Position numbers and translations under genes: made by a program
DNA from: Candidatus Aminicenantota bacterium
Lineage (GTDB): Bacteria > Acidobacteriota > Aminicenantia > UBA2199
DNA: 64,000 bases
Direction of reading: 5' to 3'
Assembly: GCA_026393835.1 (NCBI GenBank)
Contig: JAPKZK010000021.1
Span: 1 to 64,000 of the forward strand
Shown here: in pieces, positions 17,549 to 47,200 of the stretch
How the letters are laid out: each line of letters starts with the position of its first letter
Numbering within the stretch: the stretch's first letter is position 1
The notes under the pieces: generated by a model
Database searches by the model: none
Seen by the model: only the letters and a program-made list of their open reading frames with translations
What the model was told of the DNA's origin: nothing

Positions 17549-17626
17549 ATGGTAAACGTGATGATGCGCATTCAAGGCACGGGATTTTTCAACCGAACCG
17601 CTGGAGATATATCCAATGCCCGATAA
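17549..17626 (+). CDS. 25-aa leader peptide overlapping the CorA gene
   Basis: ATG at 17549 follows a strong GAGGAG site and gives MVNVMMRIQGTGFFNRTAGD then ISNAR, ending at the TAA at 17624-17626. The start of the CorA gene (17616) lies within its last codons in another frame. This is a classic arrangement for translational coupling. A 24-aa peptide is placed in the same way before the helicase gene at 40.8 kb. It could instead be the remnant of a longer gene. Confidence 0.5.
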   Translation: MVNVMMRIQGTGFFNRTAGDISNAR

Positions 17627-19253
17627 CCTTAACAAACCAAAAAGCGTTCACATATTCACTTTCCCTTTTAAATGGGACATTAAGCCGGGAGGAAAATCAT
17701 TGGCACACACCGATTTCTCCAGGCGAACTTCACTTAACGATTTTCACAAAATACTTTCAACATCACATCCGCCCTGGAGAGAAATCCATTTTAAAATCGC
17801 CGGGCCTTCCGATTATAATGAATACATCTACTTTTATGATTTTGCGCAGGATGCTTTATTTCCAAACGAAAAAAATATTAAAACCCTCAGGCAATATGAA
17901 TACAAGATAGAATCCGGTAAACCACCGGTTTATAAAATCAAACCCATCGATGCGGCCGAACCTTATGAATTGACTATCGAAAAAATCCTGCTTACCACCT
18001 ACTTTACCGGCGTGGGGATTCTTTCGTTTCACCTGGTTAATTATAAATACCTGGAATTCCAGGATATTCTCCGGGTTAATGAATATGGGAGAAGAATATA
18101 CCCGCAATTCCTGGACGCTGGAACAGAGAATTTAATCGGCTCCACAAAAAAAGCTTTTCTAGCCGATTCTCTCGAAGTGTGTATCGATGATACCGGGAGC
18201 TTCAAAGAGGATTTCAGTTATTTCGACGCCATTGAAAAGGTAAACAGCAATCCCAATATGCTTTCCAATACGATTATAGGGTTATTGGGGCGCTCGTTTT
18301 ATACAGGGGAATTAGAGGAAGCGAAAGAAGGTATACATATATCACCTATACTGGATGACCGGATGTTTGTTCTCTGTTGGTTAGCGGACAAATCGCTGTG
18401 CTGTAAACTGGCGAAATATAATAAGGAAAGCGAAACTTACGGGTATGCTGAAAACGACGACTGGTTCAAATTGGTATTTGTCGATAAGGAATACCCTTAT
18501 TGCACCAGTATTCCCATGAAGAAGAAGCTGTTGATGGAGCATACGTACGATCGCTGGATAAGAACAAAATGGAGTTCACTTTTTGGAATCACGCGGTACT
18601 CGTTTATATTGTTAAACGATAAGCAGGAAACGTTTGTTAAAGACCATTTAAAGACCATGTATTTCCAGATGGTAAAATTGGCGTTGGTGCAACAGGCTTC
18701 GATTCTTCGTTTTTCCGGTGAAGCCACCCGCATTGCTGAACTGGAAGAGCCTGAAAATACCACGGAACGAGTAAGCGTACTTCAAAAGAAATATCTCCAG
18801 TTCATCAACAAAATTTATTTCAGGGAAATCACGGCTTTTGAGCAGGGAATCGATCTATATGAGAAAATCGTCCAGGCGATGCAAATCGAACGGGATGTCA
18901 AAGAATTAGACCAGGAAATCGAAGAACTTCACCATTATGCATCCCTCCAGGAAGAAAAACGAAAAAATAATCTACTCAAAATACTTTCGATTTTCGGGTC
19001 AATTTTCCTGGTTCCTGCGTTTATCTCGGGTTTTTTCGGTATGAATGTATTTTCGAACGAACTGGGCGTAGGGGTTCCCGGTAGATTATTGACGATTGTA
19101 GGCGTTATGTTAATTGCCTGTATTATATCCTGGTTTTTGATAACAAAGCATAATAAAATAAAAAAGGTTTTTTCTGTCATTTTGGTTGTGATTGAAGTTT
19201 TCATCATAGGGATGCTTATTTCCGGATGTTTATTTACGTTAATAGGAGTATAG
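17616..19253 (+). CDS. CorA-family membrane effector of a type III-B CRISPR system
   Basis: A 545-aa protein with a large soluble N-terminal domain and a coiled coil near 400-455 (LDQEIEELHHYASLQEEKR). Two or three C-terminal membrane helices follow, the first ending in the CorA signature GMN (FISGFFGMNVF, about residues 471-481). CorA proteins are pentameric divalent-cation channels. A group of them sits in type III-B loci and in Bacteroides fragilis is activated by SAM-AMP made by Cas10, harming the infected cell's membrane. Position as first large gene of the cmr operon supports this role. The soluble domain is unlike that of housekeeping CorA and may be the ligand sensor. Confidence 0.85.
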   Translation: MPDNLNKPKSVHIFTFPFKWDIKPGGKSLAHTDFSRRTSLNDFHKILSTSHPPWREIHFKIAGPSDYNEYIYFYDFAQDALFPNEKNIKTLRQYEYKIESGKPPVYKIKPIDAAEPYELTIEKILLTTYFTGVGILSFHLVNYKYLEFQDILRVNEYGRRIYPQFLDAGTENLIGSTKKAFLADSLEVCIDDTGSFKEDFSYFDAIEKVNSNPNMLSNTIIGLLGRSFYTGELEEAKEGIHISPILDDRMFVLCWLADKSLCCKLAKYNKESETYGYAENDDWFKLVFVDKEYPYCTSIPMKKKLLMEHTYDRWIRTKWSSLFGITRYSFILLNDKQETFVKDHLKTMYFQMVKLALVQQASILRFSGEATRIAELEEPENTTERVSVLQKKYLQFINKIYFREITAFEQGIDLYEKIVQAMQIERDVKELDQEIEELHHYASLQEEKRKNNLLKILSIFGSIFLVPAFISGFFGMNVFSNELGVGVPGRLLTIVGVMLIACIISWFLITKHNKIKKVFSVILVVIEVFIIGMLISGCLFTLIGV

Positions 19254-20462: not shown

Positions 20463-22034
20463 GTGAAAACCATCGGATTAACCATCGGGCCCATTATCAA
20501 AACATTGAACATGGCCAAAAAAACACGGGAAACATGGGCCGCCAGTTACCTGTTCTCTTTCCTGATGAAAAACCTGGTCGAACAACTCCCGGCAAATGGC
20601 ATCGATAAGAATAAGATTCTCGTCCCCAATGCCGGTTCGCTTATCGATACGGGAAACAAATCCCAGGCCGGTCTGTTCCCGGATCGATTAATATTCCAGG
20701 CCGCGGAGGGAGATTTCGACAAACTCAAAAACGCCGTGAACGCAGCCATGCAAATCATGGCCGCGGGTATCTCCGAAAAGATAGGCGCCCCGCTCAACGA
20801 TGTACGCGCCGACCTGGACAACTACCTGCAAATCTATTTCATTGAGAAAGAACTGGCCCCCGGCGATAACCCTATTTTCATTTTAACACCCTACCTCGAA
20901 GCCATCGAACGGCATACCAAATACATCCATCATGACTCGAACCAATTTTTAGCGAAGTTCTTAAAACAAAGGAAGAAAGATTTCTTATCCCATGCTGCCG
21001 GTTTGGATAGAGATAGATTTAAATCGTTGATCGAAATCGCCACCCGCGAATTAGAAACTGTGAATCAAGATGCATATGAAGAAATCATCAAGAAATATAT
21101 TTACAATGAAGAGAAGGACGAAGACGAAACCTCCATTATCCGGGCATTCAAGGATGATGAGTCGCTTAAAAAGGAATTCAAGATTTATCACAAATACATT
21201 GCCATTGTCCAGGCCGATGGAGACAATATCAAGAACACCATCGAGAAATACGGGCATGACCCGGAAGCACTGAAATCCTTTTCGCACGACTTAACCCAAT
21301 ATGCCCTCACGGCGGTCGATTTAATTAAGGAATACGGCGGCGCACCCGTGTATGCCGGCGGCGATGATTTACTCTTCTTTGCCCCGGTGGTCAACCGGGT
21401 TAAAGAGCAAAATGGCCATATCTCTTCTAAAAACATCTTCGACTTAATCGATAACCTGGACGCCGCATTCAAAATCAAATTCAAAGAAAATGCCACACTC
21501 TCTTACGGCATTTCCATCACCTATTACAAATACCCCATGAATGAAGCCCTTGACCAGGCCCGCGGCCTCCTGTTTGAAAAGGCCAAAAAATATCGAAATA
21601 AAGACGGTACGGAAGAGAAGAATGCCGTGGCATTCAAAGTGTTAAAACACAGCGGCCGCTCCTTTGAAACCGTTTTTTATAAAGGAAGTGAAATCTATGC
21701 CCTGTATAAACGGATGCTGTCTCAATACAGCGTTGATAAACAATACCTCAATTCCATTGTTCACAGCCTGCAAGCGTACCGGGGCATACTAAAAGAACTC
21801 TTTGAAAACGTCAAAGACCAGGCAGTGGAACGGGTCAACCATTTTTTTGCAAACTCCTTTAATGAACAAATCCATGACGACCACAGGAAATATATAGAAG
21901 ATGCCGCTAAACTGGTATATAACGTTTATAATACAGCCCCTTCCACATGGGATGACGAGCAAAAATTCCAGGCGGTGTATGCCGTGCTGCGAACATTACA
22001 TTTTTTTAACCAGGACGACAATGAACGACAATAA
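20463..22034 (+). CDS. cmr2: Cas10/Cmr2, palm-domain synthetase without HD nuclease
   Basis: A 523-aa Cas10 with a GTG start. The first palm shows YIAIVQADGDNI (residues about 240-252) and the second the GGDD active site (VYAGGDDLLFFAP, about 296-308). No N-terminal HD metal motif is visible and the protein is short, so it should not cut DNA. Its job would be to make a nucleotide signal on target-RNA binding. In CorA-linked type III-B systems that product is SAM-AMP, made from ATP and S-adenosyl methionine. The adjacent CorA gene makes this the likely activity here, by inference. Confidence 0.9.
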   Translation: MKTIGLTIGPIIKTLNMAKKTRETWAASYLFSFLMKNLVEQLPANGIDKNKILVPNAGSLIDTGNKSQAGLFPDRLIFQAAEGDFDKLKNAVNAAMQIMAAGISEKIGAPLNDVRADLDNYLQIYFIEKELAPGDNPIFILTPYLEAIERHTKYIHHDSNQFLAKFLKQRKKDFLSHAAGLDRDRFKSLIEIATRELETVNQDAYEEIIKKYIYNEEKDEDETSIIRAFKDDESLKKEFKIYHKYIAIVQADGDNIKNTIEKYGHDPEALKSFSHDLTQYALTAVDLIKEYGGAPVYAGGDDLLFFAPVVNRVKEQNGHISSKNIFDLIDNLDAAFKIKFKENATLSYGISITYYKYPMNEALDQARGLLFEKAKKYRNKDGTEEKNAVAFKVLKHSGRSFETVFYKGSEIYALYKRMLSQYSVDKQYLNSIVHSLQAYRGILKELFENVKDQAVERVNHFFANSFNEQIHDDHRKYIEDAAKLVYNVYNTAPSTWDDEQKFQAVYAVLRTLHFFNQDDNERQ

Positions 22035-23193
22035 CAACCCCGGCAACAATAATGATCAGACCCGTAACTACCGCGTAACCTTAACCCCATTGGGGAACTT
22101 CTTTTTCGGGGGCCAAAAGCTCACCGAAGTGGAAAAGGAAAAGGATTACTATATCAAATCCCTTTATTATCCACCGCAAACCGTTATCCTCGGGATGCTG
22201 CGCCAGGAACTGCTGGTACAAAACGGCCTTTTCCCCCTGGACAAAGCCGCTGAAGAGGACAAAGAAAAAGCCGTCCGTTTGATCGGCGAAGCCAGTTTCG
22301 ACCCTACGAATACAGCGCAAGAATTCGGGGCGATCAAAGAACTATCACCCGTATTTATCATGCACGGGAAAGAACTCAGCTTTCATATATCCCCCATGGA
22401 CTACGGTCACACTTATAAACCCCACACCGATGGAAAAACCTATTTCAACTACCCCGAAGCCGGGGTTAAAGAGGTTGTTCCTTATTTCGAAGGTTACAAT
22501 GCCAAAGAGGGAAACCCGGAAAAACTCCTTTCAAAGGATTCTCCCCATGAAGCCATCGATTTGAAAGATGTATTTATACAGGATGAACAAATCGGTATAA
22601 AAAAAGGAAAAAAAGGCCAAACCGAAGAAGAAGGTTATTACAAACAGGTGTTTTTCAGATTGGAAAAAGAATATACATTTGCTTTCTATTTAAAATTGAA
22701 AGCCGAATGGAATGGTCAAGCGGTTTCATTTGCCAACAATATGGTTTTTATCGGCGGCGAGCGGTCCGGGTTCAAAATGGAACTCGAACCGGTGACTGAA
22801 GCGGATGCAAATAAACCCGTCAACGATCTTTTCGATCAAACCTTACCCCAATTGGCGGGACCAAAAATACTGTTGACCGGCGATGCCTTCGTGGAACCGC
22901 GAATCTTAAACCTGTGCGATTTTGCCGTAACCGGAAGCGTCCGTTCCAGGAATTTCCGTTCTTATGTCCGGACCACCCGTAAATACTGGAATTTAACCGA
23001 CCGTAAAGACGATAAAGAAACCCCCTTCCTGGGGGACCGGTACAATCTCTTATCCAGGGGCGCGGTTTTATATTACCATAACCCGGAAACCCTCAAAGAG
23101 TTGGAAGGGTTACTGGATATAACCGGGTATAAAAACATAGGATTCAATTATTATAAAATATATCCTTCACAGGATGAAAAAGGAAAGGAATAA
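22021..23193 (+). CDS. cmr3: Cmr3 RAMP protein
   Basis: About 390 aa from the ATG at 22021, which overlaps the cmr2 end by 14 bases; an earlier in-frame start at 21901 lies deep inside cmr2 and is rejected. The Cmr3 start is recognisable as YRVTLTPLGNFFFGGQK followed by YPPQTVILGMLRQELL. Cmr3 holds the 5' tag of crRNA and contacts Cas10. The gene order cmr2-cmr3-cmr4 supports the name. Confidence 0.82.
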   Translation: MNDNNNPGNNNDQTRNYRVTLTPLGNFFFGGQKLTEVEKEKDYYIKSLYYPPQTVILGMLRQELLVQNGLFPLDKAAEEDKEKAVRLIGEASFDPTNTAQEFGAIKELSPVFIMHGKELSFHISPMDYGHTYKPHTDGKTYFNYPEAGVKEVVPYFEGYNAKEGNPEKLLSKDSPHEAIDLKDVFIQDEQIGIKKGKKGQTEEEGYYKQVFFRLEKEYTFAFYLKLKAEWNGQAVSFANNMVFIGGERSGFKMELEPVTEADANKPVNDLFDQTLPQLAGPKILLTGDAFVEPRILNLCDFAVTGSVRSRNFRSYVRTTRKYWNLTDRKDDKETPFLGDRYNLLSRGAVLYYHNPETLKELEGLLDITGYKNIGFNYYKIYPSQDEKGKE

Positions 23194-23196
23194 ACC

Positions 23197-24081
23197 ATGC
23201 AAACAAACCAGGATCAAACCAATGAAATGCTGTACCGCCGGGATTTATACATAATAACCGCCAGGACCAACATGCATGTGGGCAGCGGCGATGAAGCCTA
23301 TGGGCTGGTGGATAACCGAGTGCAGCGGGATGTGGTAACAAAACTCCCCAATATTAACGCTTCCGGGCTAAAAGGGGCGCTTCGGGAATATTTCTCCGAC
23401 AAATGGGGCGAAAAATCGCAAGAAGTGATCGAAATATTCGGCTCCGATAGTTTTGAGAAGACCGCGCCGGGAGAGAAGAAGATTCATCAAGCCGGGGCCT
23501 TTCGTTTCTTTAACGCCAATTTGCTTTCCATTCCCGTCCGCAGCAATGTCAAACCCTTTTTCCGGGCCACCTCACCCCATGTTGTGACCGATTTAATCGA
23601 AATGATGGACACCTTCGGATACCCCGATGAATGCGGGATAAAAGAACATCTTCAGCAATTGGCCGCATTAAAGCCCGAAAAAGGCAAAGCCTTTACCTTT
23701 GACAGCACCGTTAAAGACGCCGTACTGGAAGATTACGAATACACCGTGGAAGCACATCAATTGGCCGGCGACGCCGTGACCGTGATTAAAGGCATTATCG
23801 GCGACAACCCGGTGCTCATGAATGAACTTGATTTCATGGACATCTGCGATGATTACCATTTACCCCTCATTGCCCGCAATTGCCTGGATAACGGCAGGAG
23901 TACCAATCTATGGCATGAGCAAGTAGTTCCGCGGGAGAGCCGGTTTTACTTCTTCCTGTTAAAGCCGCTCGGCAGTATGTATGACCTGGAATTCAGTCAA
24001 GGGGACCCGGTACAGATTGGCGGCAATGCCAGTATCGGGTATGGGTTTACCCGGATAGAAAAAATAGGAAAGAAACCATGA
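23197..24081 (+). CDS. cmr4: Cmr4, backbone RAMP and target-RNA nuclease
   Basis: A 294-aa protein with the Cmr4 pattern MHVGSGDEAYGLVDNRVQRD (about residues 27-46), then NASGLKGALREYF. The aspartate of GLVDNRVQRD corresponds to the catalytic residue that cuts target RNA every six bases, so RNase activity is probably kept. The C-terminal glycine-rich loop is IGGNASIGYGFTRI. It overlaps cmr5 by four bases. Confidence 0.88.
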   Translation: MQTNQDQTNEMLYRRDLYIITARTNMHVGSGDEAYGLVDNRVQRDVVTKLPNINASGLKGALREYFSDKWGEKSQEVIEIFGSDSFEKTAPGEKKIHQAGAFRFFNANLLSIPVRSNVKPFFRATSPHVVTDLIEMMDTFGYPDECGIKEHLQQLAALKPEKGKAFTFDSTVKDAVLEDYEYTVEAHQLAGDAVTVIKGIIGDNPVLMNELDFMDICDDYHLPLIARNCLDNGRSTNLWHEQVVPRESRFYFFLLKPLGSMYDLEFSQGDPVQIGGNASIGYGFTRIEKIGKKP

Positions 24082-24533
24082 AGCGCATCGATAAATTAAT
24101 CCCCACGGCCATCAACGCCATCACGGATAATCATATCCCGGTGAAAAACTGTGTGCCCAATGAGTATAAAGGTTATATCGATACTTTCGGCGCCGGTATC
24201 GTGCAGAATGGGTTAATCCCCGCCATTATTTTTTATGAAACCGCTGAGGGAAAACCTGGGGAATCCAATACAGCCGACAAGGAAAAGAAAGGGATATATG
24301 AGAACCGGAATAAATTGATGAAAGCCATACTCCAGGTAATCCGTGAAAATAAAAAGGAAGTATATCCACCCGCGGTTGATACATTATTTGAATATGTAAT
24401 GGCAAAGAAAAATGCTAAAATGGAAGAGAAACAAATCCGCCAAAAAGTGGTCGATGCAGCGATTGCTGTAAAGCTTGCCTTGCGGACGTTTGCCATGCAG
24501 AAGAAGGACGAAAATGACAGATCAAAACAATAA
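24078..24533 (+). CDS. cmr5: Cmr5 small subunit
   Basis: A 151-aa, mostly helical protein between cmr4 and cmr6 with four-base (ATGA) and 20-base overlaps to them. Cmr5 lines the inner filament of the type III-B complex. Sequence features are modest (KNCVPNEYKGYIDTFGAGIV near residue 24), so the call leans on size and position. Confidence 0.8.
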   Translation: MKRIDKLIPTAINAITDNHIPVKNCVPNEYKGYIDTFGAGIVQNGLIPAIIFYETAEGKPGESNTADKEKKGIYENRNKLMKAILQVIRENKKEVYPPAVDTLFEYVMAKKNAKMEEKQIRQKVVDAAIAVKLALRTFAMQKKDENDRSKQ

Positions 24534-25398
24534 ACCGAGAAATGACCTGGATTTGTTTACCGGAAGCAATCAGTCTAAAGAAAGACACCGTTCCAATCCT
24601 GGGCCTGATCATACCGTGAAAAAGGAAAATATAAATGTATTTTCTGCCAATATCGGGTGGTTATATTATAAAGATTACTATCATGACATCCCGTTTCATT
24701 CCGTCAAGAAAAAAGAAGAATTCAAACCTCTTTTCGAGGTTAAAAACCAGGCCATCAATTCCCGGCAATTGAGCCGTTACCCGGATGAAGTGGCTGCATT
24801 GAAATTGGATTATCAAACCATACAAAGGTTTGAATTAACCACCGAATACCCGGGGTTGGTGACCGGTTTGGGGAATCCGCATGAGTCGCACCAAGAAGGG
24901 GAATATAAATTGGGGTTTTATTTCGATCATACCACCGGGTTGCCCGTCATTCCCGGTTCATCCGTCAAAGGCGTGCTTCGTTCCGCCTTTAAGAAATCCC
25001 CGGATTACATTAAGTACCTGTTGGAGAATCCCCCGGAAAAGGAAACGCCCATCCTCGACATCGATATCGATCAATTGGAAAAAGAGATATTTGATGGAGA
25101 AGGGCTTTCTCCGTATAAAAGGGATATATTCCTCGATGCGGTTATCGTTGCCGGTGGAAACATGAACCAATTGTTTTTAGCCGCTGATTTTATCACGCCG
25201 CATCCTGATGAGTTTAAGGACCCGGTACCGTTACAATTTCTCAAAGTACTGCCCCAGGTGACATTTCGGTTCCAGTTCCGGTTAAAAAATGAAGGGCTAA
25301 TTTCCATCGAAGGCAAAAAGAGTCTCTTTGAGAGAATACTAAAAGACCTTGGCATAGGGGCAAAGACCAATGTCGGGTATGGGAAGTTTAAGGAATGA
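24514..25398 (+). CDS. cmr6: Cmr6 RAMP protein
   Basis: About 294 aa from the ATG at 24514 inside the cmr5 end. The RAMP core reads LVTGLGNPHESHQEGEYKLG, then PVIPGSSVKGVLRSAF, and ends with the glycine-rich loop GIGAKTNVGYGKF. Cmr6 caps the backbone near the crRNA 3' end. The N-terminus has a disordered charged stretch of about 45 residues. The operon pauses for 89 bases after this gene before the adaptation genes. Confidence 0.87.
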   Translation: MTDQNNKPRNDLDLFTGSNQSKERHRSNPGPDHTVKKENINVFSANIGWLYYKDYYHDIPFHSVKKKEEFKPLFEVKNQAINSRQLSRYPDEVAALKLDYQTIQRFELTTEYPGLVTGLGNPHESHQEGEYKLGFYFDHTTGLPVIPGSSVKGVLRSAFKKSPDYIKYLLENPPEKETPILDIDIDQLEKEIFDGEGLSPYKRDIFLDAVIVAGGNMNQLFLAADFITPHPDEFKDPVPLQFLKVLPQVTFRFQFRLKNEGLISIEGKKSLFERILKDLGIGAKTNVGYGKFKE

Positions 25399-25487: not shown

Positions 25488-28151
25488 ATGAATATGAATA
25501 ATAAATCGATATCCATCTTACAAGAAATTAAATGGAATAGGTTGTGTCTGACCTTTATCTGCAAGAAAACGTCTACACTGATGAAAAGCCATCCCGTCTC
25601 CGTTTTCCAGGCCATTATCAAAGCCGTCAGCAGCAGAACCCCGGCTTTTTCATCGCCGGATAACCGGATCATGCCCATTTTTCATATCCGTGACAAGAAA
25701 CATTCGTATAAGATGAATCCTTGCGATCGTTTACGGGTCGATTTCTTTTTTTTCAGGCCGGACCTTGAGGAGATTTCGTTGTGGCGGCAAAACCTGATCG
25801 AATATCTTGCCGAACCCGTCTACAGTGAAACCGTGGAAATCCTTTCCATCGGGGAAATCGAGGAGCGCAATTATCGCGCGTTGTCCGCGGAGTTCGGAGA
25901 GCTGCCAGCCCAGGGGGAAATATGTCTCGAATTTTTAATCCCTCTTTCTTTTAAGCCGGAAAGAGGCAAGACCCGGGTCAGTATTTCGAAGCATAGGTTT
26001 ATCGAGCTATTTGAGAAGCATTTTTCCGATCTATTTGCAGAGACTTTTAAGTATGAACCCGGTGAAGATGATTTTATTATACTCCCTTATTATTGGCGAT
26101 ACACCGAGATAAAACATACATCGAAGTCGCAGCCGGGGAACACGCAATACATCAATGGGGTGATAGGCAAGTTATATCTTAAAGGCAACTGGCAGAACTT
26201 TTTACCCTTTTTGGCATTGGGATCCGAGCTGCATATCGGCAGGAAGTTTACCAATTCACAGGGTTATTATAAGCTGCTTCCTGGGTCTGTTCCCTATTTT
26301 AAAGGAATTTTCCCTGATGCCAGGGAGGTCATGTCGGTAACCCGGGATGTTATCGAGAATTATGATCATGCCTGCGAATGGTTATCCCGGCACGGGAGTT
26401 ACCCGTTCGATGAAAAGGTTTTCGCCGATGAATTATGTGAGGAATTGAAGAATGATCGTTACCTCCCTGCGCCCAATACGGCGTTCGTTATCCGGCAGAA
26501 GAATAAAAAGGATCGGGTCGTGGAGCAGGTGAATTTTAAGGATTTAATAGTCAGCCGGTATTTATTGATGATTATATACCGGGTTTTTGACAATATTTTC
26601 GAAGAAGAATCGATCGGGTCCCGTAAAGGATTTTCGCGGCAGCGGGCTATCGAGATGGTAAAAAGTGCCGTCGAGGAAGGGTATGAATATATCATCGAAT
26701 CGGACATCGAAGATTTTTTCCCTTCGGTGGAATTGGCGGATTTGCAGGTATTGTTGGAACGGTATTTACCTTCTAAGGACGGTATAATCAAGAGTTTATT
26801 AGGAAAGTTGATCGGTAATGGGTATATACTGGAAGGCCGGTATCATGAGCGGGTGAAAGGATTGGCCTTAGGGAACCCGTTGTCGCCGTGCCTGGCCAAT
26901 TTATATCTCGATTCTTTCGATGAGTATATCAAAGCAATGGATGTGAGGCTCGTTCGTTATGTGGATGATTTTATCATCTTTTGTAAGAGCCCGGAGGACG
27001 CGGAAATGGTTTTGTCGGAGACCCGATCATTTCTTTCCGAAATAGGGCTTAAGTTGAAAGCTGAAAAAACGGTTTTGAAGTCAGTATCGGAAGGCTTCAG
27101 TTTCCTGGGGTTTACCTTCAAAGGTAAAACCGTAGAGGAGACAGGGGAAGAGATTGTCAAACTCTTCAAGAAACCTCTTTATATCATCGAACCGTATGTG
27201 TTCATAAGCATGAGTAGTGGTACCGTGGTATTAAAAAAAGACCAGGTCATCATAGATACGATACCGTTGGGGCGAATCAGTGAGATCATGGTGATGGAAA
27301 AAACAGTGTTTTCTACCGCCATTATCCGGTATTGTGTCGAGAATCGGATTCCTTTTACCATTACCTTGAACAATGGTTATTACATTACCACCATCAAACC
27401 CGACTCTAAAAATTATTATAATATTGCGGCGGTCCATACCCAGAAGTACGGTAAGCTAACGGAGACGGAATGTCTGTGTATTGCAAAGGAATTTGCGGCA
27501 GGGAAGATTCGAAATTTCAAGGCACTTTTTGTGCAAAAACATGTTTCGTCCAATTGGCTTGATGAGATTGTCTCACAAATTTATCAGGCGGGCGATATTT
27601 TCCAGGTTAGGGGGATAGAAGGGATGGCGGCCAGGAAGACTTTTGAACGATTAAACGAACATATTAAATCCCCTGATTTTCAATTTAAGAAAAGAATGAG
27701 GCAGCATCCTGACCGAATCAACAGTCTTCTCAATTTTGGCTATTATCTTTTATTTTCCAGGATCAATTCCACTGTCCGCGCAATGGGGCTCAATCCCTAT
27801 TTGGGTTTTCTTCACAGCCCGGGGGATAATTATGAATCACTGGTTTGCGATATCCAGGAACTTTTCCGGGCCAGGATCAATCGTCTCATCCTGCGTTTAA
27901 TCAATAAGAAGATTATTACCGGGGAAGATTTCCAGGAGAGTAAAAACGGCTTTTATTTGAACAAAGAAGGAGTGACCAGGTTTATCAACCACTTTGAAGG
28001 AGAGATGAATCGAAAGCACACGAAGGCGTCGCTTTCATTGAAGGAACACATTTATGTCCAGGTTACGGTTATTAAAAATTGGGTAATGGACGACAAATCA
28101 TTAACATTTTATGAATGGGATATTTCGAAAGAGCCGGGAGGGATCGGATGA
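25488..28151 (+). CDS. Cas6-reverse transcriptase-Cas1 fusion
   Basis: An 887-aa three-domain protein. Residues 1 to about 270 are Cas6-like and end in the glycine-rich loop LGSELHIGRKFTNSQGYYKL (about 241-260). Residues about 300-560 are a group II-intron-type reverse transcriptase: ESDIEDFFPSV (motif A), LALGNPLSPCLANLYL (motif B) and YVDDF (motif C, about 490-494). Residues about 565-887 are Cas1, with PFTITLNNGYYITTIKP, the catalytic region GIEGMAARKTF, NPYLGFLHSPG and SLVCDIQELFRA. Such fusions allow spacers to be taken from RNA. No separate cas6 exists in the locus, so the N-terminal domain is the likely crRNA-processing enzyme. Confidence 0.9.
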   Translation: MNMNNKSISILQEIKWNRLCLTFICKKTSTLMKSHPVSVFQAIIKAVSSRTPAFSSPDNRIMPIFHIRDKKHSYKMNPCDRLRVDFFFFRPDLEEISLWRQNLIEYLAEPVYSETVEILSIGEIEERNYRALSAEFGELPAQGEICLEFLIPLSFKPERGKTRVSISKHRFIELFEKHFSDLFAETFKYEPGEDDFIILPYYWRYTEIKHTSKSQPGNTQYINGVIGKLYLKGNWQNFLPFLALGSELHIGRKFTNSQGYYKLLPGSVPYFKGIFPDAREVMSVTRDVIENYDHACEWLSRHGSYPFDEKVFADELCEELKNDRYLPAPNTAFVIRQKNKKDRVVEQVNFKDLIVSRYLLMIIYRVFDNIFEEESIGSRKGFSRQRAIEMVKSAVEEGYEYIIESDIEDFFPSVELADLQVLLERYLPSKDGIIKSLLGKLIGNGYILEGRYHERVKGLALGNPLSPCLANLYLDSFDEYIKAMDVRLVRYVDDFIIFCKSPEDAEMVLSETRSFLSEIGLKLKAEKTVLKSVSEGFSFLGFTFKGKTVEETGEEIVKLFKKPLYIIEPYVFISMSSGTVVLKKDQVIIDTIPLGRISEIMVMEKTVFSTAIIRYCVENRIPFTITLNNGYYITTIKPDSKNYYNIAAVHTQKYGKLTETECLCIAKEFAAGKIRNFKALFVQKHVSSNWLDEIVSQIYQAGDIFQVRGIEGMAARKTFERLNEHIKSPDFQFKKRMRQHPDRINSLLNFGYYLLFSRINSTVRAMGLNPYLGFLHSPGDNYESLVCDIQELFRARINRLILRLINKKIITGEDFQESKNGFYLNKEGVTRFINHFEGEMNRKHTKASLSLKEHIYVQVTVIKNWVMDDKSLTFYEWDISKEPGGIG

Positions 28152-28432
28152 GGGGACTTGCCGATTATGCGGTTGTTTACGATATTAGTTCCAATAGTGA
28201 GAGAAGGAAGATTGAAAAAATTCTCAAGGATTATGGCTTTCGCATACAGGAGAGTGTTTTTGAGTGCCGGCTGGATAAACGGTTGAAGTCGGAATTAATA
28301 GAGCGATTGGAAGGTCTGGAAATATCGACGGGTTTTGTAAAGATTTATAAACAGGAATACTCCTGGAAAGATTGCATTATCGGGAAACCTCGAAAGAAAA
28401 GCATTGACAATGATAATGCGTTTGTAATATAA
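28148..28432 (+). CDS. cas2: Cas2
   Basis: About 94 aa from the ATG at 28148, which overlaps the stop of the fusion gene (ATGA); a longer frame from 28115 is rejected for that reason. The Cas2 fold start is DYAVVYDISSNSERRKIEKI with the conserved aspartate in YDIS, then FRIQESVFECRLD. Cas2 forms the adaptation complex with Cas1. CRISPR leader 1 begins right after it. Confidence 0.92.
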   Translation: MRGLADYAVVYDISSNSERRKIEKILKDYGFRIQESVFECRLDKRLKSELIERLEGLEISTGFVKIYKQEYSWKDCIIGKPRKKSIDNDNAFVI

Positions 28433-28572
28433 TAGGAGAGGTGCGAAAAATGGCAAATTTAAAAATCCATGTACAATCTCGGCTTAGTGCACATGTTTTG
28501 TGCACACTTTTAGGGAGATCGTATTTTTTGAGTCTGAAGTCATTGGCTATGAAATAGTTTCAAAGTGCCAGA
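28433..28572 (+). promoter_or_regulatory. leader of CRISPR array 1
   Basis: AT-rich, directly before the first repeat. It has a dyad GTGCACA-TGTTT-TGTGCAC (28487-28505) and the stretch TTTTTTGAGTCTGAA, ending TGCCAGA next to the first repeat. All three recur in leader 2, which marks them as functional leader elements. Confidence 0.8.
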
Positions 28573-29500
28573 GTCCCAAAGGACATCCCCCCTGGTGGGG
28601 GACGGAAACCTTACCTCTGTCCTTCCCGGAACGCTAAGATACAGTCCCAAAGGACATCCCCCCTGGTGGGGGACGGAAACAGTTGTCAATTCTTTTCCAA
28701 ATCATTGTCAGAAAAATGTCCCAAAGGACATCCCCCCTGGTGGGGGACGGAAACATTTGCTCATGACAATCGTGGCAAAAATGTAATGTCCCAAAGGACA
28801 TCCCCCCTGGTGGGGGACGGAAACACTCTGGCTTAACTTTAGCTTTCCGATGGATAGTCCCAAAGGACATCCCCCCTGGTGGGGGACGGAAACTAAGCTG
28901 TGTACCGGTGTCGCGGTTAAAGTTCGTCCCAAAGGACATCCCCCCTGGTGGGGGACGGAAACAGTTTTCTTTGATATGGGTAAACCCCATTAAACTGTCC
29001 CAAAGGACATCCCCCCTGGTGGGGGACGGAAACGTATTGGCAGCATTAATCAAGAGACCCCTAAATATAGTCCCAAAGGACATCCCCCCTGGTGGGGGAC
29101 GGAAACTGTCTGATCGTTTATACCTGCCATCCCGAACGTCCCAAAGGACATCCCCCCTGGTGGGGGACGGAAACGATAACGAGCAGGGCATGCGATTGTC
29201 GACTGGTCCCAAAGGACATCCCCCCTGGTGGGGGACGGAAACTTAGCTTTTCCACCAAGGCGGCGTATGTACCGTCCCAAAGGACATCCCCCCTGGTGGG
29301 GGACGGAAACATTTCGCCACTTTATAATCGTGCTCTTCAGTAGCGTCCCAAAGGACATCCCCCCTGGTGGGGGACGGAAACAATGATAAGCCGCAACGTT
29401 ACCGTTGGTTCCGTCCCAAAGGACATCCCCCCTGGTGGGGGACGGAAACTCACCATATATGATGCAAATGGTATAAGGAAAAGTCCCAAAGGACATCCCC

Positions 29501-29647
29501 TGAAAAGAGAGAACCGAAGAAGCGAAGAAGAGCAGAAGAGAAGCAGAAGTTGTGCGCTTCGCGCCTTTGAAAAAAGAAAAGTGGCCGAAGGCCACGCCCT
29601 ATCCTCTGCTCTTCTTATCTTCTCATCTTCTTCTCTTCTGCTTTTCC
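29501..29647. mobile_element. intervening element E1 in CRISPR repeat 14
   Basis: 147 bp between ACATCCCC and TGGGGGACGGAAAC of one repeat. The left arm is purine rich (TGAAAAGAGAGAACCGAAG and on), the right arm pyrimidine rich and complementary, ending CTTCTGCTTTTCC. The centre has two GC-rich hairpins, GCGCTTCGCGC and GTGGCCGAAGGCCAC. No ORF. The repeat's five loop bases are missing or replaced. Confidence 0.85.
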
Positions 29648-29711
29648 TGGGGGACGGAAACTTACGAAACCTTTGGCTTCGTCCTTGGTTACGGTCCCAA
29701 AGGACATCCCC

Positions 29712-29858
29712 TGAAAGGAAAGAAGCGAAGAAGAGAAGAACCGAAGAAGATAAGCGGAAGTTGCGCGCTTCGCGCATGTTGAAAAAAGAAAAGTGGCCAA
29801 AGGCCACGCCCTATCCTCTGCTCTTCTTATCTTCTCATCTTCTTCTCTTCTGCTTTTC
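29712..29858. mobile_element. intervening element E2 in CRISPR repeat 15
   Basis: 147 bp with the same architecture and left junction as E1. The right arm from CTATCCTCTGCTCTTC onward is the same as in E1, while the left arm differs. The right half of the host repeat is degenerate. Confidence 0.82.
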
Positions 29859-29872
29859 CTGCCGGGTACAAC

Positions 29873-29968
29873 CTCAGCTCATTGCACACATTTGTGTGCA
29901 CTATTTGAAGGAGGTTGTACTTTTTGAGTCTGAAATCGATGGTTATAAAACAGTTTAAAGATGCCAGA
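29873..29968 (+). promoter_or_regulatory. leader of CRISPR array 2
   Basis: Homologous to leader 1: a dyad TGCACACATTTGTGTGCA (29883-29900), the shared stretch TTTTTGAGTCTGAA and the end TGCCAGA before the first repeat. The two leaders align over about 90 bases although the repeats they precede differ. Confidence 0.75.
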
Positions 29969-30066
29969 GTCTGAGAAGACATCCTCTCTGAGAGGTACGG
30001 AAACCATGATGGGCAGCAGGCAATGCACGGGATACTGTCTGAGAAGACATCCTCTCTGAGAGGTAC

Positions 30067-30212
30067 TTTTTGAAAAAAGAACCGAAGAAACGAAGAAGAG
30101 CAGAAGATAAGCAGAAGTTGCGCGCCTAAAGGCGCTTTTTGAAACAGGCACGAAGCGCCGCCACCTCTGCTCAACTTCTTAACTTCCCAGCTTCCTAACT
30201 TCTGTTTTTAAA
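30067..30212. mobile_element. intervening element E3 in an R2 repeat, with 9-bp target duplication
   Basis: 146 bp inserted after position 30 of the repeat. The bases GAGAGGTAC occur on both sides (30058-30066 and 30213-30221) but once in intact R2, so this is a clear target-site duplication. Ends are TTTTTGAAAAAAG and CTTCTGTTTTTAAA. The centre is GCGCGCCTAAAGGCGC followed by a second stem. Confidence 0.85.
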
Positions 30213-30493
30213 GAGAGGTACGGAAACTGAACCGGAGGGAGGTCCAACATGAAAGAATTACGTCTGAGAAGACATCCTCTCTGAGAGGTACGGAAACATT
30301 TATTTGGCTCCAATATAACCGCGCTTAGTCTGAGAAGACATCCTCTCTGAGAGGTACGGAAACTTATTGAAGCTCCTGTGATTTCTCCTCGTCTGTCTGA
30401 GAAGACATCCTCTCTGAGAGGTACGGAAACAAAGTATTGTCTTTAGTCCGAGGATTATTGTTAGTCTGAGAAGACATCCTCTCTGAGAGGTAC

Positions 30494-30636
30494 TTTTTGA
30501 AGAAAGAACCGAAGAAGCGAAGAAGAGCAGAAGATAAGCAGAAGTTGCGCGCTTCGCGCTTTATAGAAAAGTGCCGGAGGCACGCCCGATGATCTGCTTT
30601 TCTGCTCCTCTTATCTTCTTCTCTTCTGCTTTTATT
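30494..30636. mobile_element. intervening element E4 in the last R2 repeat
   Basis: About 143 bp at the same left position as E3. The left end is TTTTTGAAGAAAG and the right end CTTCTGCTTTTATT, followed by GGGGTACGGAAAC. The duplicated target is shorter or mutated (GGTAC shared). The central hairpins are GCGCGCTTCGCGC and GTGCCGGAGGCAC. Confidence 0.8.
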
Positions 30637-30699
30637 GGGGTACGGAAACCAAAAACCTTGTTAATTATCATCTGACCCTCCGTCCAACAGGACATCCCC

Positions 30700-30840
30700 T
30701 GAAAAGAAAGAACCGAAGAAGCGAAGAAGAGAAGAAGATAAGCAAGAGTTGTGCGCTTTGCGCATTTAAAAAAGTGGCCAAAGGCCACGCCCTATCCTCT
30801 GCTCTTCTTATCTTCTCATCTTCTTCTCTTCTGCTTTTCC
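30700..30840. mobile_element. intervening element E5 in an R1-type repeat
   Basis: 141 bp, same junctions as E1 (after ACATCCCC, before TGGGGGACGG). The centre is GTGGCCAAAGGCCAC and the right arm is almost the same as in E1 and E2. Confidence 0.83.
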
Positions 30841-30908
30841 TGGGGGACGGAAACAATTTTTAAATAGCGTTCCTGATCTGACCCACTACTGTCCCAAAGG
30901 ACATCCCC

Positions 30909-31045
30909 TGAAAAGACAGAAGAGAAGAGGCGAAGAAGAGAAGAAGAGAAGCAGAAGTTGCGCGCTTCGCGCTTTTAAAAATGGCCGAAGGCCACCCCAA
31001 CTTCTTATCCTCTTATCTTCTCATCTTCTTCTCTTCTGCTTTTCC
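30909..31045. mobile_element. intervening element E6 in an R1 repeat
   Basis: 137 bp, same junctions as E1. The left arm begins TGAAAAGACAGAAG; the centre has GCGCGCTTCGCGC and a weakened second hairpin (ATGGCCGAAGGCCA). Confidence 0.83.
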
Positions 31046-31113
31046 TGGGGGACGGAAACAATAATAAGTGGCATTAAAATCAGCCCGCTTATAATGTCCC
31101 AAAGGACATCCCC

Positions 31114-31252
31114 TGAAAAGAGAGAAGAGAAGAAGAGAAGAAGAGAAGCAGATAAGCGGAAGTTGCGCGCTTCGCGCTTTAAAAAAAAGTGCCAGAGGCA
31201 CGCCCAACCTCTTCTCCTCTTATCTTCTCATCTTCTTCTCTTCTGCTTTTCC
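31114..31252. mobile_element. intervening element E7 in an R1 repeat
   Basis: 139 bp, same left junction as E1. The right half of the host repeat reads TGGGGTAC and is itself broken by element E8, so E7 and E8 are nearly adjacent. Confidence 0.8.
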
Positions 31253-31260
31253 TGGGGTAC

Positions 31261-31849
31261 TTTTGAAAAAAGAAGAGAAGCGGCGAAGAAGAGAAGAAGA
31301 GAAGAAAAAGAAGAAAAGAAGCGTGAACAGAAAGAAGTAAAGACAAAGATTAAGGAGGTAATTGTAAGATGAATAATTTTGAACGGAAGAAAAAATTGGA
31401 ACATTTCCGGGATTTGGAGGTATACCAAAGAGCCTTTGCCCTTGCAATGGAGATTTATAAACTGACCATTGAATATCCCAAAGAAGAGAAATATTCCCTT
31501 GTAGACCAAATAAGAAGGTCCTCTCGATCTGTATGCTCAAACCTTGCGGAATCATGGCGGAAACGTGATTATATTGCGGTTTTTAAAAATAAAATAACCG
31601 ATGCCATGCAAGAAGCTTCCGAAACCCAAACCTGGTTAGAATTTTCAATGGCTTGCGGTTACATTAATCGTGAAAAATTCGCTGCCCTGGATGATGAATG
31701 TGAACAGATTATTTCAATGCTGAGTTCAGTGGAAAAAAATGCCCCAAAATTCTGTTTCAAATAACTTCTTCTCCTCTTATCTTCTTCTCTTCTATCTTTT
31801 CACCTTCTCAACCTCTCACCTTCTTACCTTCTGCCTTTCCCGGAGTAAG
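31261..31849 (+). mobile_element. gene-bearing intervening element E8 with a four-helix-bundle protein
   Basis: About 580 bp. The left end TTTTGAAAAAAGAAGAG matches the ends of E3 and E4; a purine arm of GAAGAAGAG units follows, then the S23-type gene. The complementary pyrimidine arm (CTTCTTCTCCTCTTATC and on) begins at the stop codon and ends CTGCCTTTCC. Flanks are GGGGTAC on the left and GGAGTAA on the right, possibly a decayed target duplication. It looks like the full-length parent form of E1-E7. Confidence 0.75.
31369..31764 (+). CDS. four-helix-bundle protein (S23 / 23S rRNA intervening-sequence protein family)
   Basis: A 131-aa helical protein. The family signature is visible: FRDLEVYQRAFALAMEIYKL, then LVDQIRRSSRSVCSNLAESW and the later helix ITDAMQEASETQTWLEFS. 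Homologues are encoded inside intervening sequences of 23S rRNA genes in Leptospira and Coxiella, and the Avd protein of diversity-generating retroelements has the same fold. The biochemical role is unsettled; they form basic pentamers that bind nucleic acid. Here the gene has a TAAGGAGG ribosome-binding site and is bracketed by the complementary arms of element E8 at the end of CRISPR array 2. No 23S rRNA gene is nearby. Confidence 0.9.
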   Translation: MNNFERKKKLEHFRDLEVYQRAFALAMEIYKLTIEYPKEEKYSLVDQIRRSSRSVCSNLAESWRKRDYIAVFKNKITDAMQEASETQTWLEFSMACGYINREKFAALDDECEQIISMLSSVEKNAPKFCFK

Positions 31850-44247: not shown

Positions 44248-47200
44248 ATGGTCGAAGCTGAAATTAAAACCAGGATTCGCGAAGCCATCAACGGTTTCTC
44301 AAACGAAAATTTATCCGCTAACGCGCTCAAACTTTTCCAAACGCTCGGTTACAACACCGACCGGCAAAATCCATTCACCGAACGAACCTTCCGCTTTTTC
44401 AAAGAAGAATTTCTTGAGGGAAATACTTGTTTCAATGAAGAAAAAGCAAAAGCTAAAGAGTGGAAAGAGGTTGACCTCTTGTTCCAGCTCACAAAAGATG
44501 AGGTCGCCGGTCCACATGGAGTAATGGACGCCGGGCAGGTAAACCGGGGCCAAATGGAATCCTATCTCTTCTTTGCCATTGAACTAACGAATGCGGGGTG
44601 TTCCAGGACTACACTGGCGCAGATTACCCGACAAGTGAATAAAGTCTTTGCCATGCCGGTAATGATTCTTTTCAAAACCGGGGGCAGCCTTACGCTTGCC
44701 ATCATCGATCGCAGGCTGCATAAACGCGACGAGCGCAAGGATGTATTGGAAAAAGTCACCCTCATCAAAGATATCGATATTGCAAATCCCCATCGGGCGC
44801 ATATTGAAATCCTGTTTGATCTGTCCCTCGATGAATTGAGACGAAAGCATGAGCACGAGCAAAAACACAAACTCAGCGGTTTTGAAGAATTGCACAAAGC
44901 CTGGCGGAAGGCGTTGGATACCCAGGAACTCAATGAACTGTTTTTCAAGGAACTTTCCGACTGGTATTTCTGGGCCATGCAGAACGTATCGTTCCCGGAT
45001 GATGTTGAGAAAAATGAAAGCACCCGCAATGCCACAAGCCTTATTCGCCTGATTACCCGCATTGTTTTCATCTGGTTTATTAAAGAGAAAAAACTTGTAC
45101 CTGATGTGCTTTTTGACCGTAAGGCCCTTGGCCTTATCTTGAAAGAATTTTCTAAGGATAAAAACTCCCATGGCTACTATCAAGCCATTCTTCAAAACCT
45201 CTTTTTTGGAACACTCAACCAGGAGATGAATGAACGCGGTTTTGTCAAAGACGGTCCATTTGTTGAAAACAGATCAACCTATGGCGTGAAAAACCTTTTC
45301 CGTTATGCCGACCGGTTCTCTATCGGCGAAGATGAAGCCCTCGCGTTGTTTAAAGATATCCCGTTCCTGAACGGCGGCCTTTTCGATTGCCTGGATAAGG
45401 AAAACGATGAAGGTAAAGTGCAATATGCCGACGGATTCTCCCGGAACCCAAAAAAACAGGCCATTGTCCCTGATTTTCTTTTCTTTGGTCCCGAAGAAGA
45501 ATGCGATCTCAACGCTGTATACGATACGAAGAATAAAAAATATGAAGTTAAAGGACTGATCCATATACTTTCCGGCTATAAATTTACCATTTCCGAAAAC
45601 ACGCCGGTAGAAGAAGAGATCGCCCTTGACCCCGAACTCCTGGGTAAAGTATTTGAAAATCTCCTGGCAAGTTACAACCCTGAGACTCATTCTACTGCGC
45701 GGAAACGGACCGGTTCCTTTTATACACCGCGTGAAATAGTGGATTACATGGTGGATGAATCGTTGATGGCCATCCTCACCCCGGCCCTCTCCAAAGGAGA
45801 GGGAGAAGACCTCACCCCGGCCCTCTCCAAAGGAGAGGGGGAAGACCTCACCCCGGCCCTCTCCAAAGGAGAGGGGGAAGACCTTACCCCGGCCCTCTCC
45901 AAAGGAGAGGGGGAAGTACCGGGCTATATTACGACTTCCCCTGACATCTACAAAGTACTAAAACCACTTACTATTGAAAATCGACAGCATGCTACCGAAG
46001 CCGAAGCAATATTATGGGAAGAACTTAGAAACAGAAAGTTAGGTTTCAAGTTTAGAAGACAGCACCCGGTCGATAAATATATTGTGGATTTCATATGTCT
46101 TTCAGCCAATTTGGTGATTGAGGCTGACGGTGATTATCATAATTCGGAAGAACAGCGGGAAAGTGATAAGGTACGGACTGAGCGTCTTCAAGACCTGGGC
46201 TACCGCGTATTGCGATTCAAAAATGAGTCCATTCTCAAAAATATTCAAAACGTTTTGTCTTCTATCAAAACTGCCCTCTCCAATCCCCCCTCGCCTTTGG
46301 AGAGTGAGTCAGGGGCCCTCTCCAATCCCCCCTCTCCTTTGGAGAGGGGGCCAGGGGGTGAGGTTAAACTCCGCCACCTGCTCAGTTATTCGGAAAATCC
46401 CAATCCATTCAATCCCAAAGAAACCGAAATTTTGATTAAGGCAATCGATGCCTGCAAAATCCTGGACCCCGCGTGTGGTTCCGGCGCTTTTCCCATGGGT
46501 ATACTCCACAAACTGGTTCATATTCTCCACCAACTGGACCCCGGAAATAAACTGTGGAAAGACAGGCAAATCGAAAAAGTGCTGGCGGTGGATGACGCGG
46601 CGCTGCGTGAACATATGGTTGGCGATATAGAAGCGGCCTTTGAGAACAATGAACTGGACTACGGTAGAAAGCTTTATCTTATTGAAAACTGCATTTACGG
46701 TGTGGATATACAGCCCATTGCCATACAAATCAGCAAGCTCCGTTTCTTTATATCACTCATCGTTGACGAGGATGTAAATCGCGATAAAGAAAACTATGGT
46801 GTTCGCAGCTTGCCGAACCTGGAAACCAAGTTTATCGCGGCCAATACATTGATTGGCCTGGATAAACCGGAACAGCGGATGTTGAAAAATCCGGCAATCG
46901 ACAAATTGGAAAAAGAGTTGAAAGAGCTTCGGCATCGCTATTTCAGCGCAAAGAATCGCACGGAAAAGCTTGCCTGCCAGAAAAAGGATAAAACCTTGCG
47001 GCTAAAAATATCCGATTTACTTGTTTTAGATGGTTTTCCAAGAGAAGCGGCCAAACAAATTGCCGACTTTGACCCATATGACCAGAATGCCTCCAGCCCG
47101 TTCTTCGATTTCGAATGGATGTTCGGGCTAAAGGCAGAGAAAGCGGGTGATGGTGTCTTTGATATAGTGATCGGGAATCCGCCGTATGTGCAAATTCAAA

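What the first reader, a model, noticed from the sequence alone, without database searches (positions are those of the whole stretch)
29483..31849. A family of intervening elements with a four-helix-bundle gene has invaded CRISPR repeats
Seven repeats are split by 137-147 bp elements with a purine-rich left arm (GAAGAAGAG units), two small GC hairpins and a complementary pyrimidine right arm. The eighth element has the same arms and carries an S23-type four-helix-bundle gene. In 23S rRNA genes such proteins are encoded by intervening sequences that sit in hairpin loops and are removed by RNase III without religation (known for Leptospira, Coxiella and Salmonella, the last without a gene). Here the elements extend the hairpin of the CRISPR repeat in the same way. 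The crRNA tag ACGGAAAC stays intact to the right of most inserts, so processing by Cas6 may still work. I know of no description of such elements in CRISPR arrays.
Basis: partly seen in the sequence, partly recalled or inferred. Interest (0 to 1): 0.95.

Follow-up and report, generated by a model that had tools for sequence, protein, structure and literature searches.

The report
Hairpin parasites split CRISPR repeats
In one bacterial genome, 18 of the 44 CRISPR repeats of one type that were read are split at their hairpin by look-alike palindromic DNA elements, beside which sits a copy carrying a gene of the family known from ribosomal-RNA intervening sequences; these are likely mobile elements that would hide in RNA hairpins whose normal cutting removes them.

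Summary
Seven CRISPR repeats at 29483-31260 are split by 138-149 bp palindromic elements. An S23/IVP four-helix-bundle gene (31369-31764) lies in an element with the same arms, inserted as a second hit in the seventh repeat, not in an eighth repeat of its own. On the contigs read, 18 of 44 repeat 5' halves are element-split, 25 are intact, one is otherwise broken. Elements point one way; where the repeat's right half survives it starts at the hairpin loop or the top of the 3' arm. Folding predicts a lengthened repeat hairpin with the crRNA tag free, apart from its first base, in 6 of 7 cases.

The elements are not confined to CRISPR: relatives carry them elsewhere, and cousins sit in frame in NRPS genes (21 of 21 examined). 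RNase III excision, mobility and crRNA output are untested. A new variant of a known kind.

The parts
25488..28151 (+). Cas6-RT-Cas1 fusion of the type III-B locus (Cmr2 20463-22034, Cmr3 21901-23193, RAMPs 23197-24081 and 24475-25398, Cmr5 24078-24533, CorA-like 17616-19253)
   Evidence: Pfam PF01867 3e-62, PF00078 1e-29; the Cas6 part PF10040 only 24.8 bits, cut-off 25; NCBIfam TIGR02577 Cmr2; Cmr5
28115..28432 (+). Cas2
   Evidence: PF09827 5e-14
28404..28433 (+). consensus sigma-70-type promoter-like site (TTGACA-18-TATAAT) before array 1
   Evidence: 12 of 12 match; a consensus match only
28573..29449 (+). array 1, 13 intact 37-nt repeats GTCCCAAAGGACATCCCCCCTGGTGGGGGACGGAAAC
29483..29661 (+). 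split repeat w1: 5' half 29483-29500, element 29501-29648, 3' half with tag 29649-29661
29694..29860 (+). split repeat w2: 5' half 29694-29711, element 29712-29860; right half lost, runs into leader 2
29861..29968 (+). leader 2 of the second array
   Evidence: repeat family D9 shares it with the stretch before array 1; same stretch on C129
29969..30004 (+). first intact repeat of array 2 (GTCTGAGAAGACATCCTCTCTGAGAGGTACGGAAAC); further intact ones at 30262, 30328, 30395
30037..30227 (+). split repeat w3: 5' part 30037-30066 to GGTAC, element 30067-30212, right half GAGAGGTACGGAAAC 30213-30227 (9-bp duplication GAGAGGTAC)
30464..30649 (+). split repeat w4: 5' part 30464-30493, element 30494-30636, right half GGGGTACGGAAAC of another repeat type 30637-30649 (mosaic)
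30682..30854 (+). split repeat w5: element 30700-30841
30891..31059 (+). split repeat w6: element 30909-31046
31096..31260 (+). split repeat w7: 5' half 31096-31113, element 31114-31253, GGGGTAC 31254-31260
31261..31842 (+). S23-bearing element w8: left end TTTTGAAAAAAGAAGAG right after GGGGTAC, pyrimidine right arm; right end approximate
31369..31764 (+). S23/IVP four-helix-bundle gene, 131 aa
   Evidence: PF05635 1e-33, TIGR02436 5e-30, AlphaFold model pLDDT 90.6 with four long helices, Foldseek to 2gsc and 2rld

Best explanation
Palindromic elements split CRISPR repeats at their hairpins in this genome and share arms and a left end with an element carrying an S23/IVP gene; they are likely an intervening-sequence-like mobile family, predicted to be inserted at hairpins with the help of the S23 protein and tolerated because crRNA processing would cut them away. 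Shown by the sequence: about 140-bp elements with complementary arms and two internal hairpins follow 18 of 44 repeat 5' halves in one orientation; where the right half of the repeat survives it starts at the apical loop or the top of the 3' arm; the left half ends near the loop in 14 of the 18 and behind GGTAC in 4 (w3 shows a 9-bp duplication); the S23 element uses the GGTAC entry point. Predicted by folding: the element lengthens the 3' hairpin of the repeat while the 5' hairpin and the mostly unpaired tag remain. Inferred: RNase III and Cas6 would trim the insert from pre-crRNA, so spacers downstream stay usable; S23, a fold relative of the Avd protein of diversity-generating retroelements, would act in trans on gene-less copies, probably with a reverse transcriptase, at hairpins extruded in DNA or RNA. 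Modules of the elements have been shuffled between copies, and 12 of 13 array ends that I read end in an element-split repeat.
For: Split versus intact: of 44 5' halves on the G000 contigs read, 25 intact, 18 element-split (my reading of the rows; two of them, C129:6509 and C60:5867 in locus coordinates, hold irregular or intron-cut elements), 1 otherwise broken; in G003 1 intact, 2 split. Of 21 forward model hits of at least 73 bits in G000, 17 adjoin CRISPR repeat sequence: 15 by the script, plus C129:18668 and C163:1616 (3' half at the edge of the printed flank). In one search all 17 hits with a 5' half (15 in G000, 2 in G003) have the same orientation. Junctions. Covariation of the arms. 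In 6 of 7 folded split repeats the base of the repeat stem still pairs and the tag is free apart from its first base. Second case: G041:C7, another family of the class, repeat ATTTAGAGCCTAACTATGAGGAATTGAAAC, holds an S23 gene between arms and a gene-less copy; right ends identical over 73 bp, left ends 98% over 50 bp. Its S23 protein is 28% identical to the window's. S23 genes sit between complementary arms: 62 of 99 above the 99th percentile of 297 mismatched-flank controls and 85 of 99 above the 95th, against 1 and 4 of 110 other ORFs. S23 model matches Avd 4dwl_D, TM 0.72, E 0.02, below the S23 structures 2gsc and 2rld. DGR homing needs a GC hairpin/cruciform at the target (PMC3240598, passages).
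Against: Not confined to CRISPR: G003:C837 has a class A element at an intergenic site; G001:C703 and G000:C139, C129:14189 are not in repeats. Model R1 was built from 14 CRISPR-borne copies, so its best hits favour such copies. CRISPR is a minor home of S23 elements: in 123 held S23 loci and regions (some overlapping; mostly 1-1.5 kb of flank) the array detector found arrays only at the window and at G041:C7; three other flags (L178, L239, L250) were tandem arm repeats on inspection. In G041 the junction is at the foot of the repeat's weak stem, not its loop. No transposition, RNase III cut or crRNA has been observed. The tag is kept right of only 7 of 18 split 5' halves. In w4 the base of the stem does not re-form. 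In a 411-nt fold with two inserts the arms of neighbours cross-pair. The number of pairs with a double change is matched by one slid control. The match to the Avd family model is far below its cut-off (21 against 80 bits). No reverse transcriptase lies in the element.
Confidence: 0.55

Rival explanations
1. Ordinary non-autonomous palindromic elements (MITE-like or Rickettsia-palindromic-element-like) moved by an unrelated transposase; CRISPR repeats are hit because they are hairpins, and S23 is only a passenger gene caught between arms.
For: Relatives with other arms lie in NRPS genes in frame and in intergenic DNA; the 9-bp duplication in w3 would suit a DNA transposase.
Against: S23 genes recur between complementary arms of many different sequences, and in two unrelated CRISPR families S23-bearing and gene-less copies share ends (left end in the window, both ends in G041). 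Only 4 of 18 split repeats have the entry that can give a duplication; in the others part of the loop is lost or the cut is central.
Confidence: 0.25
2. Few primary insertions; most copies spread by recombination, gene conversion or duplication of an insert-bearing repeat during spacer acquisition.
For: Modules are shuffled: w1, w2 and w5 right arms 100% identical, w6 and c129c hairpins 100% identical, w3 and c129d have a class A left arm with class B-like right parts; the neighbours w1 and w2 are each other's closest relatives (91%), and w7 is closest to its neighbour w6 (85%); w4 joins halves of two repeat types.
Against: No duplicated spacer shows or on reading; w3, w5 and w6 are closest to copies elsewhere (c129d 87%, w1 90%, c129c 91%); 5' halves of neighbouring split repeats differ (CAACA, CCAAA, CAACC on C60); two entry points; G003:C808 has other arms at the same position.
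Confidence: 0.12
3. Cas6-RT-Cas1 captured structured RNAs and integrated them as cDNA at repeats.
For: The locus encodes a Cas6-RT-Cas1 fusion beside the invaded arrays.
Against: Inserts lie inside repeats, not at repeat borders where the adaptation integrase is known to act (recalled); related elements sit outside arrays; G041 has the same kind of element with a different repeat family (its cas genes were not examined).
Confidence: 0.04
4. The elements are a working part of the array, for example an end-of-array hairpin.
For: 12 of 13 array ends that I read end in an element-split repeat whose right half is lost (by eye; C157 is the exception).
Against: Several elements are internal with normal spacers after them (w1, w3-w6, C60 b and c); loss of the right half is also what decay after insertion gives.
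Confidence: 0.04

Closest known systems
Intervening sequences (IVS) of bacterial 23S rRNA with the S23/IVP gene (Coxiella burnetii IVS, PMC4990558, passages read)
   Same: Insertion in a hairpin of a structured RNA gene, complementary termini forming a long stem, S23-family gene in some copies and none in others (the gene-less Salmonella case is recalled), fragmenting processing expected
   Different: Host RNA is pre-crRNA; many copies per genome; arms are low-complexity purine/pyrimidine tracts; no 23S copy found here; RNase III excision not tested
Rickettsia palindromic elements (MITE review PMC10969869, passages read; the original papers were not read, one was not held)
   Same: About 150-bp palindromic repeats, several families per genome, some in frame inside protein genes
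   Different: No S23 link and no CRISPR target in the passages read; here the recurrent in-frame site is one loop of NRPS adenylation domains
Diversity-generating retroelements with Avd (PMC3240598, passages read)
   Same: Small four-helix-bundle protein of a like fold; target recognition by a GC hairpin/cruciform
   Different: No dedicated RT in the element; a template/variable repeat pair was not sought; weak sequence match far below cut-off
Insertion sequences and prophages in CRISPR loci (PMC10359306, passages read)
   Same: Mobile DNA in CRISPR loci, including prophage integration into direct repeats
   Different: Those are described as disabling; these are short palindromes at the repeat hairpin, many per array, leaving tag and spacer in place in part of the cases

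Membership tests
23S rRNA-type intervening sequence (IVS) | lies within the 23S rRNA gene | tested here: not met
   elements lie in CRISPR repeats and other sites; no 23S rRNA gene found in this genome, so 23S copies could not be sought
23S rRNA-type intervening sequence (IVS) | inserted in a hairpin of a structured RNA | tested here: met
   right junctions at the loop or top of the 3' arm of the repeat hairpin, predicted fold extended; weaker in G041
23S rRNA-type intervening sequence (IVS) | complementary ends forming a long stem | tested here: met
23S rRNA-type intervening sequence (IVS) | S23/IVP gene in some copies | tested here: met
   31369-31764, PF05635 and TIGR02436; G041
23S rRNA-type intervening sequence (IVS) | excised by RNase III without religation | not testable with these tools
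   needs RNA work
Rickettsia-palindromic-element-like repeats | palindromic, about 100-150 bp, several families, some in frame in genes | tested here: met
   arm relatives in NRPS adenylation domains, 21 of 21 recognised cases open in frame
MITE of a DNA transposon | fixed-length target duplication and a parental transposase with the same ends | tested here: inconclusive
   9-bp duplication in w3; loop bases lost in type A copies; the gene-bearing relative encodes S23, not a known transposase; no transposase with these ends was sought genome-wide
Diversity-generating retroelement | Avd above family cut-off | tested here: not met
   DivGenRetAVD 21 bits, cut-off 80
Diversity-generating retroelement | template/variable repeat pair with a dedicated RT | not tested
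   not sought

The most novel reading that the evidence does not exclude
S23/IVP proteins are the mobility factors of a widespread class of hairpin-homing elements, working like Avd with a reverse transcriptase borrowed in trans; ribosomal intervening sequences are one outlet, and CRISPR repeats, which are hairpins that the cell itself cuts out, are another safe harbour that they have colonised at least twice.
Probability: 0.3. Interest if true: 0.92.

Novelty: new variant of a known kind. Interest (0 to 1): 0.8.

Why it matters
The origin and function of 23S intervening sequences are described as unclear, and a mobility role for the S23 ORF has been only a hypothesis (PMC4990558, passages). 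Here S23-bearing and gene-less copies with common ends occur side by side in two unrelated CRISPR repeat families, and 62 of 99 S23 loci of one phylum lie between arms more complementary than the 99th control percentile, so the hypothesis becomes testable in a small system. It also shows CRISPR repeats as a niche for selfish hairpins, which array-finding software would probably break up or miss (inference).

Tried and rejected
Looked for the same element in 23S rRNA: no 23S gene found in this genome; a family-wide repeat of that search gave no answer and the retry met the cap. Rfam: only hits far below the families' gathering scores, nearly all microRNA models, on the arms. Assembly artefact: held unlikely, five contigs plus a separately assembled relative; no reads were available. 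Chance: rejected. Copying by spacer acquisition as sole cause: unlikely, though w1 and w2 would fit it. Terminator function: the scan gives many hairpin-like sites, mostly on the minus strand; not pursued. Three more CRISPR flags beside S23 genes (L178, L239, L250) were read and are tandem arm repeats. Literature: the listings of ten searches showed no description of IVS-like or S23 elements in CRISPR repeats in the held open-access library; of the papers listed I read passages of four and none whole; subscription papers are not covered.
Full report
SETTING. The window is part of contig C179 of an 8.19 Mb, 212-contig genome. Its relative G003 (same genus) contains a contig identical to JAUPLE010000047.1, titled Acidobacteriota bacterium, so I take the host to be an Acidobacteriota. 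The locus is type III-B: CorA-like protein, Cmr2, Cmr3, Cmr5, two RAMPs, a Cas6-RT-Cas1 fusion (the Cas6 part just under its Pfam cut-off) and Cas2, then two arrays. The repeat has a 5' hairpin, a 3' GC hairpin and the 8-nt end ACGGAAAC; that this is the crRNA tag of type III systems is recalled.

THE ELEMENTS. Seven repeats in the window are split by 138-149 bp elements. Fourteen copies from four contigs align (partial and irregular copies were left out). The arms pair, and they co-vary between class A (GAAGAAG arms) and class B (GAAGTTAGGAGGTTAGG arms): 93% of cells paired, 20 cells changed on both sides against a shuffled mean of 8.3 (0 of 500 shuffles reach it) and at most 14 in slid versions; the count of pairs with a double change, 8, is reached by the version slid +3 and by 2 of 500 shuffles. 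The structure was derived from the same alignment, which favours it, and related sequences can exceed the shuffles.

WHERE THEY SIT. The core pattern occurs 11 times in the genome at up to 2 mismatches, only on C179, C129, C60 and C163 (the backwards control gave 4). These contigs carry further arrays and mini-arrays of the same repeat family. A covariance model (R1) run on the whole genome gave 68 rows (the first look had 3706 candidates, of which 150 were scored). Dropping mirror-strand rows of the same places, 21 places score at least 73 bits, and 17 adjoin CRISPR repeat sequence (for 15; C129:18668 and C163:1616 by reading). The other four are C129:15100 (behind a leader, only GTCC left), C129:14189, C129:19829 (behind what reads as a group II intron end) and C139:56319 (intergenic). 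R1 was trained on CRISPR-borne copies, so this fraction is biased upwards. An inventory independent of R1 counts repeat halves on the stretches read of six contigs: of 44 5' halves, 25 are intact, 18 are followed by an element (two of them irregular or cut by the intron: 6509 of the C129 locus, 5867 of the C60 locus), 1 is broken otherwise (C157); in G003, 1 intact and 2 split. The intact number equals that of a whole-genome pattern search (25); 5' halves on contigs that I did not read were not sought.

JUNCTIONS. Wherever the right half survives (w1, w3-w7, C60 a-d, C163 a) it starts at the loop or the top of the 3' arm of the repeat hairpin. The left half ends near the loop in 14 of 18 (mostly CCCC or CCCCTCT; about five loop bases lost in the GTCCCAAAGGAC type) or after GGTAC in 4 of 18, two bases inside the presumed tag; in w3 this leaves GAGAGGTAC on both sides. 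The S23-bearing element uses the GGTAC entry. All 17 hits with a 5' half point the same way.

RNA VIEW. In the predicted fold the insert lengthens the 3' hairpin; the 5' hairpin stays, and the tag stays free, apart from its first base in four of them, in 6 of 7 split repeats folded (w4 fails at the stem base). Against this, a longer fold with two inserts lets neighbouring arms pair with each other.

S23 GENE. The 131-aa protein matches PF05635 (1e-33) and TIGR02436; the model (pLDDT 90.6) has four long helices; Foldseek gives 2gsc and 2rld (S23 family) first and Avd 4dwl next (E 0.02, TM 0.72). A database search found 7985 relatives at 1e-10 among the 7999 candidates scored.

SECOND CASE. In 123 held S23 loci and regions (overlapping in part; short flanks) an array detector needing three exact 14- to 16-mers at array spacing found, besides the window, one array: G041:C7, another family of the class; three further flags were tandem arm repeats. 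Its repeat is of a different kind. Between repeats 4 and 5 is an S23 gene flanked by complementary arms; at the contig start is a gene-less copy with the same ends (right ends identical over 73 bp, left 98% over 50 bp). The two S23 proteins are 28% identical. The junction is at the foot of the repeat's weak stem, and the gene-less copy's left flank is cut by the contig end, so the target rule is not shown there. The element was found in 1 of 3 genomes of that genus.

S23 GENES GENERALLY. In 99 loci from the class (53) and phylum (46), upstream and downstream flanks are complementary far beyond controls: 62 above the 99th and 85 above the 95th percentile of 297 mismatched pairs; 110 other ORFs of 100-170 aa, listed mechanically, give 1 and 4 above the same scores. 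The loci were the top-scoring S23 genes of genomes plus further listed ones, not a random draw; five fetched loci (L171, L242, L246, L252, L255: too short or repeats of places already counted) and extra genes of clusters were not given to the test. PF05635 is found in 187 of 396 phylum genomes and 40 of 142 class genomes.

OUTSIDE CRISPR. In 60 genomes searched with R1, 5 have hits, counting G000 itself: four of one genus, one weak in another genus. G003:C837 has a class A copy at an intergenic site; G002:C554 has one directly after a CRISPR-like hairpin ending GGGGTAC although the exact repeat pattern is absent from G002. Arm relatives lie in one loop of NRPS adenylation domains, in frame in all 21 cases that I recognised (12 in G000, 9 in relatives). 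An element before what reads as a cobalamin-dependent mutase gene (by eye) is shared by G000:C126 and G003:C226, showing persistence across species.

MECHANISM. Most likely an intervening-sequence-like mobile family that enters hairpins and survives because the hairpin part of the repeat is cut off during crRNA maturation. The role of S23 rests on shared arms and ends, on recurrence in two repeat families, and on its fold likeness to Avd, whose retroelement needs a hairpin/cruciform at the target (PMC3240598, passages). The RT step is conjecture; RTs seen are Cas6-RT-Cas1 and a group II intron protein read by eye at C163. Shuffled modules show that recombination or template switching also acts.

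NOVELTY. Insertion of mobile DNA into CRISPR loci, including prophages in direct repeats, is known (PMC10359306, passages). Intervening sequences with S23 are known from 23S rRNA (PMC4990558, passages). The listings of ten searches of the held library showed no description of such elements in CRISPR repeats (calls under tried and rejected).

Noticed in passing
window 45777-46366: Inside an Eco57I-type methylase ORF (44248-48642) lies an in-frame insert coding a DUF559 domain between four tandem units (CCTCACCCCGGCCCTCTCCAAAGGAGAGGG...) and inverted counterparts: another gene-in-palindromic-arms element with a different gene.
   Followed up: partly
L111-L119, L121, L125, L133, L135-L138, L141, L142, L145: Palindromic elements with related arms sit in frame at one loop of NRPS adenylation domains (between KDSGAKLLVTT and NLAYIIYTSGS), 21 of 21 recognised cases open.
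   Followed up: partly
L050 end (C60), L051 start (C163), L049 end (C129): What reads as a group II intron appears inserted in the left arm of an element in an invaded array; contigs break in it.
   Followed up: no
L049, L050, L051, L127: Mini-arrays with leader-like stretches, 0-2 intact repeats and an element at the end alternate with toxin-antitoxin-like gene pairs (naming by eye), as if islands were strung together.
   Followed up: no
L004, L005, L006, L003: Other S23 genes of the same genome lie between quite different low-complexity inverted arms (ATTGGTGA, ATAAATG, ATGATGA, GTAAGAAG units), several with small GC hairpins.
   Followed up: partly
L175-L178, L180, L181: S23 genes occur in clusters of several on single contigs of relatives (for example G087:C51, G008:C223, G035:C7); L178, L239 and L250 show tandem arm units beside the gene.
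   Followed up: partly
G002:C554 (L129): A lone CRISPR-like hairpin ending GGGGTAC precedes an element in a genome where the exact repeat pattern is absent.
   Followed up: no
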